The notes under the pieces are model-generated. The model saw only the letters and a list, made by a program, of their open reading frames with translations. It was not told the DNA's origin and did not search any database. From Thermaerobacter sp. FW80 (lineage in GTDB: Bacteria; Bacillota; Sulfobacillia; Thermaerobacterales; Thermaerobacteraceae): a stretch of 64,000 nt of DNA. Position 1 is the first letter of the stretch, and every line of letters starts with the position of its first letter. The translations under genes were made by a program, and so were the position numbers. This document shows positions 23,913-64,000 of this stretch, one piece after another. The stretch spans positions 1,153,245-1,217,244 of the forward strand of contig NZ_CP037895.1 in the NCBI RefSeq assembly GCF_004634385.1, in the 5' to 3' direction.

Positions 23913-24285
23913 GGCGTTGCGCGGCTCCTCGCCATCGGCCGTGGCCGGCGCGACGCCGGGCGGTTCCCGGCCGCGATCGGTCATGCCGGTGAGGCGTCGC
24001 GCATAGCCTGGCGATGGACGAGCCGGTGCGGCGCCATCCCATGGTGCGCTGCGGGGGGCCCGCACCGGCGAGCCGCGGCACCCCGGCCCGCAGGTCTCGA
24101 CGGCCGCCGCGCGAGGGGACGCGATCCAGCCCAAATCCTTGGAAAAGCATCCAGTTCGATGGAAGGAACTCCGGCACGGGCGTGGTATAGCTGTCCACAA
24201 CCGACTGTCACAGATCGGAGGGGGCCGTTAACAGCTTGCCGAAATATAGTCAGACATAGGCAAACATCTGTGCTACATTTCCAAG

Positions 24286-24858
24286 ATGAAGCTCTCCGAG
24301 TGGGCCAAGCGTGAAGGAATCAGTTCCATCACCGCCTGGCGTTGGTGGAAGGCGGGGCGGTTGCCCGTTCCCGCCCGGCAGGCCCCATCCGGGACCATTC
24401 TCGTGGACCTTCCGGCTCCGGCGAAAGGGGAGACGGTGGTCTGCGCTTGCGTTTCCTCGCACGACCAGAAGAACGATCTCGACCGCCAAGTTGCCCGGGT
24501 CACGGCATGGGCAACGGAACACGGGTTTCCTGTGGACCAAGTGGTGACGGAAATCGGGTCCGGGCTGAATGGGAAACGGGCGAAGTTTCGCCGGCTTCTG
24601 GCCGACGCATCGGTTGCCACCATTGTGGTGGAACACCGCGATCGGTTGGCCCGCTTTGGGGTGGAGTACCTGGAAGCCGCTCTCGCGGCCCAGGGGCGGC
24701 GCATCGTCGTCGTGGATCCGAGCGAATCAACAGAGGACCTTGTGCGCGACATGATTGAAGTGCTGACCTCCTTCTGCGCTCGGCTGGATGGCCGACGGGG
24801 AGCGCGGAATCGGGCCATGCGGGCCCTGGCTGCAGCCCGCCGGGGCGATGCCGAATGA
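24286..24858 (+). CDS. tnpA: IS607-family serine recombinase TnpA, likely inactivated
   Basis: The N-terminal 45 residues form a MerR-like helix-turn-helix (LSEWAKREGISSITAWRWWKAGRLP). The resolvase-like catalytic domain follows: VSSHDQKNDLDRQVARV with nucleophile Ser57, VTEIGSGLNGKRAKFRRLL, VEHRDRLARFGVEYLEAAL. Family members read Tyr-Ala-Arg-Val-Ser before the nucleophile, and the second copy in this window does so. Here the same positions are Cys53-Ala-Cys55-Val-Ser57. Loss of the active-site Arg should abolish or badly impair strand exchange. Full length (190 residues). The stop overlaps the tnpB start. Confidence 0.9.
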   Translation: MKLSEWAKREGISSITAWRWWKAGRLPVPARQAPSGTILVDLPAPAKGETVVCACVSSHDQKNDLDRQVARVTAWATEHGFPVDQVVTEIGSGLNGKRAKFRRLLADASVATIVVEHRDRLARFGVEYLEAALAAQGRRIVVVDPSESTEDLVRDMIEVLTSFCARLDGRRGARNRAMRALAAARRGDAE

Positions 24859-26123
24859 AGGTTCTTCAAGCGTACCGCTTCGCCCTGGACCCCACACCCC
24901 GCCAGGAACGGGCGCTGGCCTCCCACGTGGGCGCCCGCCGCTTCGCCTTCAACTGGGGCTTGGCCCTGGTGAAGGAGCGCCTGGAAGCCCGCGCCCGGGG
25001 CGAGGACGTGGAGGTGCCATGGACCCTTCCCGCCCTGCGGCGGGAGTGGAACCGGCAAAAGCACCTCGTCGCCCCCTGGTGGCGGGAGAACTCGAAGGAG
25101 GCCTACTCCTCCGGGCTGGACGGGCTGGCCCGGGCCCTACAGAACTGGTCCAAAAGCCGCAAAGGTGAACGTAAGGGACGCCGGGTGGGGTTCCCCCGGT
25201 TCCGGAAGAAGGGCCGCGGGCGGGAGTCGGTGCGGTTCACCACCGGCGCGATCCGGGTGGACGACAAGAGCCACGTCGTCCTGCCCCGGATCGGGCGGGT
25301 GAAGACCCACGAGCCGACCACGGCCCTGCTCCGACGCATCGAAGCGGGAACGGCCCGCATTCTGTCCGCCACGGTCGCCCGGGAAGGGGGCCGGTGGTTC
25401 GTCAGCTTCACCTGCGAGGTGGAGCGGCAGACGGGCCAGCCCCGGTTCCCCTGGCGGGTGGTGGGCGTGGACGCGGGGGTGAAGCACCTGGCGGTCCTTT
25501 CGACGGGTGAGAAGTGGCCGAACCCCCGGTCCCTTGAAAAAGTGCTCCGGAAGATCGCCCGGTCCAGCCGCGCCCTGGCCCGCCGGCAGAAGGGCAGCCG
25601 GGGGTGGCAAAAGGCCCGCCGCCGGCTGGCCCGGCTCCATGCGCGAGCCCGAAACCTCCGCCAGGATGCCCTTCACAAGCTGACCCACCACCTGGCGAGC
25701 ACCTACGGTGTGGTGGTCGTCGAACAGCTGCACGTGGCGGGCATGCTGAAGAACCGGCGGCTGGCCCGGGTGCTGGCCGATGCGGCCCTGGCGGAGATCC
25801 GCCGCCAGCTCAGCTATAAGTGTCCCTGGCACGGCGCGGTCCTGGTCGAAGCGCCGCCCTTCTATCCCAGCAGTAAGCGCTGCTCACGGTGCGGCGCGGT
25901 CAAGCCGTCGCTGCCGCTTTCGCAGCGCGTTTTCCGCTGTGAGGAATGCGGGCTCGTGCTTGACCGGGACGAAAACGCGGCCCGGAATCTCGCGGCCCTT
26001 GTGGCCGCCGTCGCCGGGAGTGGCCCGGAGACGAGAAACGCCCGTGGACGGGATGGAAGACCTACCGCAAGGCAGGCGATCCCGGAGGAAGCGGGAAGCC
26101 GGCACCGGCGCATGGTCGGGTAA
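24855..26123 (+). CDS. tnpB: TnpB, RNA-guided nuclease of IS607 element
   Basis: TnpB proteins are RuvC nucleases guided by an RNA from the element's right end; they cut the empty donor site. The protein has an N-terminal helix-turn-helix region (VLQAYRFALDPTPRQERAL). RuvC-I is VVGVDAGVKHLAVLSTG, RuvC-II VVVEQLHVAGM, then a zinc finger with CSRCGAVKP and CEECG, then RuvC-III LDRDENAARNLAAL. All three acidic residues and the four Cys are present, so it looks catalytically intact. 422 residues. It differs from the other copy at scattered positions, for example RKIARSSRALARR against KRLARWNRALARR. Confidence 0.93.
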   Translation: MKVLQAYRFALDPTPRQERALASHVGARRFAFNWGLALVKERLEARARGEDVEVPWTLPALRREWNRQKHLVAPWWRENSKEAYSSGLDGLARALQNWSKSRKGERKGRRVGFPRFRKKGRGRESVRFTTGAIRVDDKSHVVLPRIGRVKTHEPTTALLRRIEAGTARILSATVAREGGRWFVSFTCEVERQTGQPRFPWRVVGVDAGVKHLAVLSTGEKWPNPRSLEKVLRKIARSSRALARRQKGSRGWQKARRRLARLHARARNLRQDALHKLTHHLASTYGVVVVEQLHVAGMLKNRRLARVLADAALAEIRRQLSYKCPWHGAVLVEAPPFYPSSKRCSRCGAVKPSLPLSQRVFRCEECGLVLDRDENAARNLAALVAAVAGSGPETRNARGRDGRPTARQAIPEEAGSRHRRMVG

Positions 26124-26206
26124 GACCGGCACCGCCGATCCGCAAGGATCGGCTGCCTGAAAACAGATGACGATGTTTCAGGTAACGGTGAGGATGCCGG
26201 GGTGGC
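26124..26206 (+). ncRNA. Predicted guide RNA (omega RNA) 3' end of IS607 copy 1 with flanking guide
   Basis: Directly after the tnpB stop there is a hairpin GCCGATCC-GCAA-GGATCGGC (26134-26153, GNRA loop). A second stem, CCTGAAA (26156-26162) with TTTCAGG (26176-26182), follows, then GTAACGGTG at the element end. The same structure is conserved in copy 2. In characterised TnpB systems the RNA overlaps the end of tnpB and its guide is the host sequence just past the right end. Here that would begin AGGATGCCGGGGTGGC. The 5' end and the exact guide start are inferred. Confidence 0.55.
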
Positions 26207-26278
26207 GCGTTGGGGGCCGCAGGCGATCGCCGGGCGGGGTGCCGCCCGTTTCGGTCGCCGTCGCGCCCCGCGAGGGCA

Positions 26279-26361: not shown

Positions 26362-27222
26362 GTGCTTCGAAAGGGCCGACGCAGCGGCCTGGTGGGCGAA
26401 TCGGGCTGCGGCAAGTCGACCCTGGCGCGGCTGATCCTGCGGCTGATCCCGCCCACCGCCGGGCGGATCTGGTTCGACGGCCAGGACCTGCTGGCGCTGC
26501 CGCCGGCGGCCATGCGCAGGATGCGCCGCCAGATGCAGATCATCTTCCAGGACCCCTTCGGCTCCCTGAACCCGCGCTTCACCGTGGCCGACATCATCGG
26601 CGAGCCCCTGCGGGTGCACGGGATGCGCCGGCGGGAGGAGCGGGAGCGGCGGGTGGCGGAGCTGATGGAGCTGGTCGGCCTCAACCCCGCCTGGCGGCAC
26701 CGCTTCCCGCACCAGTTCTCCGGCGGCCAGCGTCAGCGCATCGGCATCGCCCGGGCGATCGCCCTCAACCCCCGGTTCGTCGTGGCCGACGAGGCCGTCT
26801 CGTCGCTGGACGTCTCGGTCCAGGCCCAGATCCTGAACCTGCTGGCCGACCTGCAGGAGCGGCTGGGATTGACCTATCTGTTCATCGCCCACGGCCTCAA
26901 CGTGGTGCGCCACGTCTCGACCCGCGTCGGCGTGATGTACCTCGGCCAGCTGGTGGAGGTGGCGCCGGTGGACGAGCTCTTCGGCCACCCGGCCCATCCC
27001 TACACGGCGGCCCTGCTCTCGGCGGTGCCCGTCCCGCATCCGCGCCGGCGCCGGGAGCGCATCGTCCTGCAGGGTGACGTGCCCTCGCCCGCGAATCCGC
27101 CGGCGGGGTGCCGGTTCCACCCCCGCTGTCCCTTCGCCCAGCCGCGGTGCCGGGAGGAGCCGCCGGTGCTGCGGCCGGTGGCGCCGGGGCACGCGGTGGC
27201 CTGCCACTTCCCGTTGGAATAG
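26362..27222 (+). pseudogene. 5'-truncated OppF-type ATPase relic
   Basis: The reading frame begins almost exactly at [15 protein letters not shown], so about 50 N-terminal residues with the first beta-strands and the adenine-stacking loop are missing. A stop codon lies directly upstream in frame (26359-26361). The remainder aligns with opp[44 protein letters not shown]. Two conserved positions are changed: Walker B flank DEAVSSLD instead of DEPVSALD, and the H-loop [10 protein letters not shown] instead of [10 protein letters not shown]. The truncated end lies 171 bp from the IS607 right end, suggesting a deletion linked to the element. It could still be translated from GTG at 26362, but is unlikely to be a working ATPase. 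Confidence 0.75.
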
Positions 27223-62177: not shown

Positions 62178-62259
62178 CTTGACCGGGCGCTTGCACCGTT
62201 ACCTGAAACGTCGTCATCTGTTTCAGGCAGCCGATCCTTGCGGATCGGCGGTGCCGGTC
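62178..62259 (-). ncRNA. Predicted guide RNA (omega RNA) 3' end of IS607 copy 2 with flanking guide
   Basis: On the minus strand, after the tnpB stop, the GCCGATCC-GCAA-GGATCGGC hairpin (62249-62230) and the CCTGAAA/TTTCAGG stem repeat those of copy 1. One base is deleted inside the second stem's loop side, and there is one T/C change. The element ends at 62194; the flank that would serve as guide begins CAAGCGCCCGGTCAAG, unrelated to the flank of copy 1. Confidence 0.55.
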
Positions 62260-63528
62260 TTACCCGGCCATGCGCCGGTGCCGGCTTCCCGCTTCCTCCG
62301 GGACCGCCCGCCTTGCGGCAGGTCTTCCATCCCGTCTGCGGGCGTTTAACGTCTCCGGGCCACTCCCGGCGACGGCGGCCACGAGGGCCGCGAGATTCCG
62401 GGCCGCGTTTTCGTCCCGGTCGAGCACGAGCCCGCATTCCTCACAGCGGAAAACACGCTGCGAAAGCGGCAGCGACGGCTTGATCGCGCCGCACTGGGAA
62501 CAACGCTTGCTGCTCGGGTAGAACGGCGGCGCTTCGATCAGCTTCGCTCCGTACCATGAGCGCTTGTAGCTGAGCTGACGGCGGATCTCCGCCAGGGACG
62601 CATCGGCTAGCGCCCGGGCCAGCCGACGGTTCCTCAACATGCCCGCCACATGCAGCTGTTCAACCACCACCACGCCATAGCTGGTCGCCAGCTGGTGCGT
62701 CAGCTTGTGAAGGGCATCCTGGCGGATGTTCCGGGCCCGCGCATGGAGCCGGGCCAGCCGACGCCGGGCCTTTTGCCATCCCCGGCTGCCCTTCTGGCGC
62801 CGGGCCAGGGCGCGGTTCCACCGGGCCAGCCGTTTCAGGTTCTTCTCCAGCGCTCGGGGGTTGGGCACGACCTCCCCCGTGGAGAGCACCGCCAGGTGCT
62901 GGACGCCCGCATCGACGCCGACGACTTTCCAGGGGAACCGGGGCCGGCCCGGCGGCCGCTCCACCTCGCAGGTGAAGCTGACGAACCATCGACCCCCTTC
63001 CCGGGCGACCGTGGCGGACAGGATGCGGGCCGTTCCCGCTTCGATGCGCCGGAGCAGGGCCATGGTCGGCTCGTGGGTCTTCACGCGCCCGATCCGGGGC
63101 AGCACGACGTGGCTCTTGTCGTCCACCCGGATCGCGCCGGTGGTGAACCGCACGGACTCCCGCCCCCGCCCCTTCTTCCGAAAACGCGGGAATCCAACCC
63201 GGCGGCCCTTGCGTTCACCCTGGCGGCTCTTCGACCAGTTCTGCAGGGCCCGGGCGAGTCCGTCCAGACCGGAGGAGTAGGCCTCCTTCGAGTTCTCCCG
63301 CCACCAGGGGGCGACGCGGTGCTTTTGCCGGTTCCACTCCCGCCGCAAGGCGGCGAGGGTCCATGGCACTTCCACGTCTTCACCCCGGGCGCGGGCTTCC
63401 AGGCGCTCCTTCACCAGGGCCAAGCCCCAGTTGAAGGCGAAGCGGCGGGCGCCCACGTGGGAGGCCAGCGCCCGTGCCTGGCGGGGTGTGGGATCCAGGG
63501 CGAAGCGGTACGCTTGAATGACTTTCAT
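62260..63528 (-). CDS. tnpB: TnpB, RNA-guided nuclease of IS607 element, copy 2
   Basis: Same 422-residue length as copy 1. RuvC-I VVGVDAGVQHLAVLSTG, RuvC-II VVVEQLHVAGM, zinc finger CSQCGAIKP with CEECG, and RuvC-III LDRDENAARNLAAL are intact. Differences from copy 1 are scattered (Gln for Lys after DAGV, LKRLARWNRAL for LRKIARSSRAL, SYKRSWYGAKLIEAPP for SYKCPWHGAVLVEAPP). This indicates long separate histories rather than a recent duplication. ATG overlaps the tnpA stop. Confidence 0.93.
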   Translation of the reverse strand: MKVIQAYRFALDPTPRQARALASHVGARRFAFNWGLALVKERLEARARGEDVEVPWTLAALRREWNRQKHRVAPWWRENSKEAYSSGLDGLARALQNWSKSRQGERKGRRVGFPRFRKKGRGRESVRFTTGAIRVDDKSHVVLPRIGRVKTHEPTMALLRRIEAGTARILSATVAREGGRWFVSFTCEVERPPGRPRFPWKVVGVDAGVQHLAVLSTGEVVPNPRALEKNLKRLARWNRALARRQKGSRGWQKARRRLARLHARARNIRQDALHKLTHQLATSYGVVVVEQLHVAGMLRNRRLARALADASLAEIRRQLSYKRSWYGAKLIEAPPFYPSSKRCSQCGAIKPSLPLSQRVFRCEECGLVLDRDENAARNLAALVAAVAGSGPETLNARRRDGRPAARRAVPEEAGSRHRRMAG

Positions 63529-64000
63529 TCGGCATCACCCCTGCGGGCTGCGGCCAAAGCTCGCAGGGCCCGATTGCGCGCTCCCCTCCGGCCATATAAT
63601 CGAGCGCAGAAGGAGGTCAACACTTCAATCATGTCGCGCACAAGGTCATCCGTTGATTCGCTCGGGTCCACGACCACGATCCGCCGTCCCTGGGCTGCGA
63701 GAGCGGCTTCCAGGTACTCCACCCCAAACCGGGCCAACCGATCACGGTGTTCCACCACAATCGTTGCAACCGATGCGTCGGCCAGAAGTCGGCGAAACTT
63801 CGCCCGTTTCCCATTCAGCCCGGACCCGATTTCCGTCACCACTTGGTCCACAGGAAACCCGTGTTCCGTTGCCCATGCCGTGACCCGGGCAACTTGACGG
63901 TCGAGATCGCTCTTCTGGTCGTGAGAGGAAACGCGGGCGTACACCACCGTCTTCCCTTTTGCTGGAGCAGGCAGGTCCACGAGGATGGTCCCGGATGGGG
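63525..64000 (-). CDS. tnpA: IS607-family serine recombinase TnpA, copy 2 (partial, N-terminus outside window)
   Basis: Open to the window edge; the visible frame reads PSGTILVDLPAPAKGKTVVYARVSSHDQKSDLDRQVARV onward, so the helix-turn-helix domain is cut off. The active-site Tyr-Ala-Arg-Val-Ser motif is intact, unlike copy 1. The C-terminal part, VEHRDRLARFGVEYLEAALAAQGRRIVVVDP, is nearly identical to copy 1. If its 5' end is also intact, this copy could supply recombinase to both elements. Confidence 0.9.
   Translation of the reverse strand, partial: PSGTILVDLPAPAKGKTVVYARVSSHDQKSDLDRQVARVTAWATEHGFPVDQVVTEIGSGLNGKRAKFRRLLADASVATIVVEHRDRLARFGVEYLEAALAAQGRRIVVVDPSESTDDLVRDMIEVLTSFCARLYGRRGARNRALRALAAARRGDAE

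What the first reader, a model, noticed from the sequence alone, without database searches (positions are those of the whole stretch)
24286..26206. Two IS607 elements with conserved guide-RNA ends but different flanking guides
Both copies keep the same right-end fold: a GCAA-capped 8-bp hairpin, a second 7-bp stem, and GTAACGGTG at the border. The sequence diverges exactly there. Both TnpB proteins keep the three RuvC acidic residues and the zinc finger. By analogy with characterised TnpB systems, each element should make an RNA whose guide is its own flank (AGGATGCCGGGGTGGC here, CAAGCGCCCGGTCAAG at 62193). The result would be two natural nucleases with different targets.
Basis: partly seen in the sequence, partly recalled or inferred. 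Interest (0 to 1): 0.72.

Follow-up and report, generated by a model that had tools for sequence, protein, structure and literature searches.

The report
IS607 transposons with RNA-guided TnpB nuclease
The two elements are ordinary IS607 jumping genes whose TnpB enzyme is predicted to use an RNA ending in the neighbouring chromosome as a guide to re-cut empty sites; they belong to a ten-copy family of a known kind, some relatives of which may be switched on by DNA damage.

Summary
Both elements are IS607 transposons (tnpA+tnpB) with intact RuvC D206/E290/D370 and a four-Cys zinc finger, and both right ends match Rfam RF03015. The fold covaries across 15 sequences from Firmicutes to Actinobacteria (20 of 28 pairs changed on both sides, 0/500 shuffles). 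The border is off by two bases: sister copies all diverge after ...GGTAACGG, and the two window copies share the next 'TG' by chance. The guides therefore start TGAGGATGCC... (26189) and TGCAAGCGCC... (62195, minus strand). There are not two nucleases. The genome carries about ten distinct full copies with 89-100% identical TnpB and different flanks.

Neither window flank has a preserved empty site in the genus. Three sister copies do: seamless joins after GGG with no duplication. Targets read GGG|guide while right ends read CGG|guide, which predicts a GGG target motif and protection of the occupied site. GGG also fits the known IS607 target preference.

RNA production and cutting are inferred. 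This is a new member of a known kind. A side finding may be newer: tnpB-only sister copies carry a LexA-type box inside the tnpB promoter.

The parts
24220..24224 (+). Left flank of element 1, GGGGG; the last GG is the predicted IS607 core and the last GGG the predicted target-adjacent motif
   Evidence: Left-border comparison of sister copies
24225..26188 (+). Element 1, complete IS607 transposon (about 1964 bp), ending in the core GG
   Evidence: Borders from sister copies; seamless empty sites of sister copies
24244..24270 (+). Left-end motif at positions 20, 30 and 40 from the border, probable TnpA binding repeats
   Evidence: 10-bp phasing found; compare IS1535, PMC6188088
24286..24858 (+). 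tnpA, IS607 serine transposase (190 aa); active-site motif reads CACVSS where YARVSS is usual (Arg to Cys), so activity is doubtful
   Evidence: Pfam Resolvase, NF033518 206.7 bits vs cut-off 110, comparison of copies
24855..26123 (+). tnpB, RNA-guided endonuclease (422 aa), D206/E290/D370, zinc finger C343/C346/C362/C365; start overlaps tnpA stop
   Evidence: Pfam, NF038280 528.8 bits, residue positions
26088..26157 (+). RF03015 'Transposase-2' RNA: predicted omega-RNA scaffold overlapping the tnpB 3' end
   Evidence: cmscan 76.9 bits; covariation
26134..26153 (+). 8-bp hairpin with GCAA loop
   Evidence: Fold, covariation helix 3
26154..26184 (+). Second right-end stem (9-10 bp, one bulged A in this copy)
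   Evidence: Folds
26187..26188 (+). GG core at the right end (AACGG|); C at position -3 where empty targets have G
   Evidence: Right-end table
26189..26208 (+). Predicted guide of element 1, TGAGGATGCCGGGGTGGCGC (chromosomal flank)
   Evidence: Border from sister copies; only perfect match in own genome
62176..62195 (-). Predicted guide of element 2, TGCAAGCGCCCGGTCAAGGC (chromosomal flank)
   Evidence: Border from sister copies; only perfect match in own genome
62196..64000 (-). Element 2, IS607 transposon; its left end lies outside the window, about 158 bp beyond position 64000
62226..62295 (-). RF03015 'Transposase-2' RNA of element 2
   Evidence: cmscan 79.4 bits
62260..63528 (-). tnpB of element 2 (422 aa), same catalytic and zinc residues
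63525..64000 (-). tnpA of element 2 (190 aa, continues beyond the window), YARVSS motif intact

Best explanation
Each element is an IS607 transposon that moves through TnpA, a serine recombinase exchanging DNA at a GG dinucleotide without duplication. tnpB and the element's right end produce a TnpB protein and an omega-RNA: a scaffold (RF03015 plus the last stem, ending ...AACGG) followed by about 16-20 nt of the right flank as guide. When TnpA excises the element, the healed donor site reads GGG|guide and is cut by TnpB; repair from a sister chromosome that still holds the element restores it. The occupied site reads CGG|guide and should be spared. Shown here: element anatomy, borders, covarying RNA fold, intact catalytic residues, purifying selection, and GGG|guide at empty sites of sister copies. 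Inferred: RNA expression, GGG as the cutting motif, cutting, and retention. All copies should share one TnpB pool, because proteins and scaffolds are nearly identical.
For: TnpB scores as IS607 RNA-guided TnpB (528 bits, cut-off 350) and TnpA as IS607 transposase (206.7 and 222.7 bits, cut-off 110). ISDra2 TnpB structures are among the closest solved relatives (8h1j, 8bf8, E about 6e-59), with the RuvC D-E-D positions aligned. RF03015 hits at both right ends and in 9 of 20 related loci from Firmicutes and Actinobacteria. Covariation: 93% of cells paired, 20 of 28 pairs changed on both sides, 0/500 shuffles, sliding control collapses to 24-43%. Sister copies share everything up to CGG and then diverge. 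Empty sites of three sister copies join seamlessly after GGG; two further insertions with local deletions also have GGG before the guide in relatives. tnpB dN/dS about 0.15-0.33 between copies. The guides have no second perfect match in the genome; the two-mismatch near matches of guide 1 lack GGG, and the one inspected near match with GGG (C1:163638) has three mismatches. Published IS607 TnpBs cut RNA-guided with TAM AGGAG or GAGGG (PMC11061315).
Against: No transcript or cleavage data. IS607 TnpA itself prefers (G)GG targets (PMC6188088), so the GGG flank does not prove a TnpB motif. No preserved empty site for either window element. Element 1's TnpA has lost the conserved Arg of the YARVSS motif, so its own excision is doubtful. 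Covariation could partly reflect a DNA hairpin.
Confidence: 0.84

Rival explanations
1. The elements are decaying: the proteins look intact but the system is no longer working, at least for element 1, and the conserved right end only reflects recent copying.
For: Element 1 and copy L009 share CACVSS instead of YARVSS in TnpA. Many truncated copies in the genome. The four copies in G003 each carry a stop in tnpB.
Against: tnpB dN/dS about 0.15-0.33 among copies and all full-length frames open in the own genome. The fold is kept across distant phyla. Two different sites carry the CACVSS variant, so it moved at least once, perhaps in trans.
Confidence: 0.15
2. The right-end hairpins are a DNA feature (TnpA binding or a transcription terminator), not an RNA scaffold, and the flank is not a guide.
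For: Transposon ends often carry inverted repeats (general knowledge); the right-end arms CTGAAACAG/TGTTTCAG resemble the left-end terminus GAACAG.
Against: Several linked helices and a GCAA-type loop kept in most relatives, covarying across distant phyla and matching an Rfam RNA family. IS607 TnpBs with mapped RNAs use exactly this position (PMC11061315, PMC10711439).
Confidence: 0.06
3. TnpB here is a guide-directed binding regulator (TldR-like) rather than a nuclease.
For: TnpB-derived regulators exist (PMC13418256, abstract).
Against: The RuvC D-E-D triad and zinc finger are intact in both window proteins; TnpA is still adjacent; guides match perfectly only the own flank.
Confidence: 0.03

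Closest known systems
IS1535 / IS607-family transposons (Chen et al. 2018, PMC6188088)
   Same: TnpA catalytic domain is closest to IS1535 among solved chains (E 1.2e-58); GG core, no target duplication, (G)GG target preference, phased left-end repeats starting about 20 bp from the border
   Different: Element 1 TnpA has Cys in place of the active-site Arg; many sister copies carry tnpB alone with a different left end
IS607 TnpB with RAGATH-18 reRNA (ISFba1, PMC11061315)
   Same: IS607 TnpB, guide from the right flank, G-rich target motif (GAGGG in 4 of 22 strains)
   Different: The RNA here is RF03015, overlaps the tnpB 3' end, and no RAGATH-18 match was found
ISXfa1 TnpB (PMC10711439)
   Same: IS607 TnpB whose fixed nucleotide after the crossover belongs to the scaffold, so the guide starts after GG
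   Different: Different lineage; target motif not compared here
ISDra2 TnpB (8h1j, 8bf8; PMC8612924)
   Same: Among the closest solved structures by sequence (E about 6e-59), D-E-D triad and zinc finger aligned
   Different: ISDra2 belongs to IS200/IS605, with a Y1 transposase

Membership tests
IS607 transposon family | IS607-type serine transposase | tested here: met
   NF033518 206.7 bits (element 1) and 222.7 bits (element 2), cut-off 110
IS607 transposon family | GG core at both ends, insertion without target duplication | tested here: met
   Border tables; three seamless empty sites of sister copies. Not directly testable at the two window sites
IS607 transposon family | Phased TnpA motifs within the left end | tested here: met
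   Repeats at 20/30/40 bp in elements 1 and 2, compared with PMC6188088
IS607 transposon family | Catalytically intact TnpA | tested here: inconclusive
   Element 2 YARVSS intact; element 1 CACVSS
RNA-guided TnpB nucleases | TnpB sequence family with RuvC D-E-D and zinc finger | tested here: met
   NF038280 above cut-off; residues; PDB alignment
RNA-guided TnpB nucleases | Conserved structured RNA at the right end | tested here: met
   RF03015, covariation
RNA-guided TnpB nucleases | RNA 3' end enters the flank and guides cutting next to a TAM | not testable with these tools
   Empty-site layout GGG|guide is compatible; needs RNA sequencing and cleavage assays
RAGATH-18 reRNA group of IS607 TnpBs | RAGATH-18 RNA next to tnpB | tested here: not met
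   Scan of all Rfam families at gathering threshold gave only RF03015
TldR-type regulators | Loss of the RuvC catalytic triad | tested here: not met
   D206/E290/D370 present

The most novel reading that the evidence does not exclude
The tnpB-only sister elements of this family are under SOS control. A LexA box (GAACANAYGTTC) sits between the -35 and -10 of the tnpB promoter in all 15 copies read plus one remnant, so DNA damage would induce the guide RNA and nuclease. Together with elements that carry tnpA, this gives two architectures sharing one nuclease pool but regulated differently.
Probability: 0.5. Interest if true: 0.6.

Novelty: new member of a known kind. Interest (0 to 1): 0.38.

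Why it matters
It adds a multi-copy IS607 TnpB family from a GC-rich bacterium. It ties the Rfam RNA RF03015, for which no characterisation was found in the held papers, to TnpB guide RNAs by position and covariation, and it gives natural empty sites that predict a GGG motif and a one-base self-protection rule (G versus C at -3). If the LexA box holds, it would link a transposon nuclease to the DNA damage response, a testable idea about when such nucleases are made.

Tried and rejected
Empty sites of the two window elements: joined flanks searched in 40 relatives; only outer gene parts matched, the DNA at the borders is not conserved. Second targets of the guides in the own genome: no perfect match; two-mismatch near matches of guide 1 lack GGG, and one three-mismatch site at C1:163638 does have GGG. 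Domesticated orphan guide RNA at C1:2128353: rejected as a conserved feature because G001 and G002 lack it at the same locus. Trans-mobilisation of tnpB-only copies by the tnpAB transposase: not supported, their left end lacks the phased ACATA repeats. LexA box at recA: none found in G000, G001, G002. No held paper mentions RF03015. A dN/dS value involving the L115 tnpB was discarded because the reading frame was wrongly cut. One right border (L106) was mis-picked; the correct one is and also ends in CGG. Structure prediction was not run because sequence evidence for TnpB was already strong.

Full report
Check of the observation. Element 1 spans 24225-26188 on the plus strand and element 2 runs from 62196 on the minus strand to about 158 bp beyond the window. 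Each holds tnpA and tnpB with overlapping stop and start. Pfam and NCBIfam identify an IS607 transposase and an IS607 RNA-guided TnpB, both above curated cut-offs. The two TnpB proteins are 382/422 identical and keep D206, E290, D370 and four zinc-finger cysteines. Both right ends match Rfam RF03015, and the last 100 nt of element 2 fold with z = -4.8 against shuffles.

Correction of the border. The genome (3.04 Mb, three contigs) holds 11 full tnpB copies and 17 right ends. All intact right ends agree up to ...GGTAACGG and then diverge at once. The two window copies share TG after that point by chance. This agrees with the finding for ISXfa1 that the fixed base after the crossover belongs to the scaffold (PMC10711439).

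Two architectures. Six listed copies (five distinct) carry tnpA and tnpB and are about 1963 bp long. Five copies in this genome, and others in two species of the same genus, carry tnpB alone, are about 1474 bp long, and share the right end but have a different left end. Both kinds start at GGG|NNNNNAACAGC. Two exceptions to the GGG left flank are the copy on contig C2 and the copy in L115; 16 of 18 tabulated copies have GGG, and element 1 and L002 also do.

Empty sites. For the window elements the flanking DNA is not conserved in relatives. For three sister copies the uninterrupted site exists in another species: the flanks join seamlessly, without duplication, and the orthologous empty sites read CGGG|TCATTCAGG, AGGG|ATGGAGCGG and GGGG|GTCCGCCAA. 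Two further insertions in G001 (L102, L105) removed roughly 330 and 480 bp of target between two GGG sites; in relatives the guide sequence is again preceded by GGG. Every tabulated right end in the occupied state reads CGG before the guide. A TnpB that needs G at -3 would cut the empty site and spare the occupied one. The (G)GG preference of IS607 TnpA (PMC6188088) is an alternative source of the GGG.

RNA. RF03015 lies at the same place in 9 of 20 related loci from Firmicutes and Actinobacteria. In a 15-sequence alignment five helices keep 93% of pairs, 20 of 28 pairs show changes on both sides, no shuffle of 500 reaches these values, and sliding the partners destroys the signal. The alignment of the last stem is weak for distant members, but most fold a stem there and all end in AACGG.

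Selection and activity. tnpB dN/dS between copies is about 0.15-0.33. Element 1 and copy L009 share a TnpA with CACVSS in place of YARVSS; the missing Arg corresponds, from my knowledge of serine recombinases, to a conserved active-site residue, so this TnpA may be dead and the element moved by others. TnpB and scaffolds are so alike that I expect exchange between copies; this is inference.

Side finding. In tnpB-only copies a palindrome GAACANAYGTTC lies in the roughly 17-bp spacer of the tnpB promoter, 92-97 bp from the left border in the four copies measured, in all 15 copies read and one remnant. The genome-wide pattern GAACNNNNGTTC occurs 44 times against 14 for a reversed control, six of the 44 being in these elements. 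The same box lies in the promoter of a LysM (YneA-like) gene divergent from lexA, beside a Y-family polymerase gene, and near lexA in G001 and G002 as well. recA lacks it. The box lies outside the zone that TnpA binds in IS1535 (8 to 78 bp, PMC6188088). A LexA site is the best reading, but it is untested. The window elements themselves have only AAACATATGTGC or AAACATCTGTGC there.

Verdict. The finding is a sound reading of a known system with a two-base border error and an undercount of copies. Novelty is that of a new member of a known kind. The LexA lead is the part most worth testing.

Noticed in passing
L004, L005, L008, L010, L011 (G000) and G001/G003 copies, 92-97 bp from the left border: tnpB-only elements carry a LexA-type box GAACANAYGTTC between -35 and -10 of the tnpB promoter; the same box stands near lexA and a Y-family polymerase gene, not at recA.
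   Followed up: partly
L102 and L105 (G001), compared with L215-L217: Two insertions are accompanied by deletion of about 330 and 480 bp of target between two GGG sites; cause unknown (TnpA adjacent deletion, two insertions plus recombination, or cutting and repair).
   Followed up: partly
window 24286-24858 and L009: Two copies share a TnpA with Arg to Cys in the active-site motif (CACVSS), with no synonymous difference between their tnpA genes.
   Followed up: partly
G000 contig C2 (77,620 bp): The start of the contig recurs at 51679 and its end at 25945, so it is probably a circular replicon of about 51.7 kb assembled with redundant ends; its two near-identical IS607 copies are likely one.
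   Followed up: partly
G000 C1:2128353-2128417 (L054): Orphan right end, 97 bp, reduced to the guide-RNA region, between a dapA-like gene and an RNase J-like gene, directly before TATAATAG; absent at this locus in G001 and G002.
   Followed up: yes
window 26362-27222: The ABC transporter ATPase gene right of element 1 seems to lack its usual N-terminal part; relatives keep several kb of extra DNA between the two flanks, so the locus was rearranged.
   Followed up: partly
G003 tnpB copies L093, L103, L106, L109: All four full-length tnpB copies of this species carry one in-frame stop (three TGA, one TAA).
   Followed up: no
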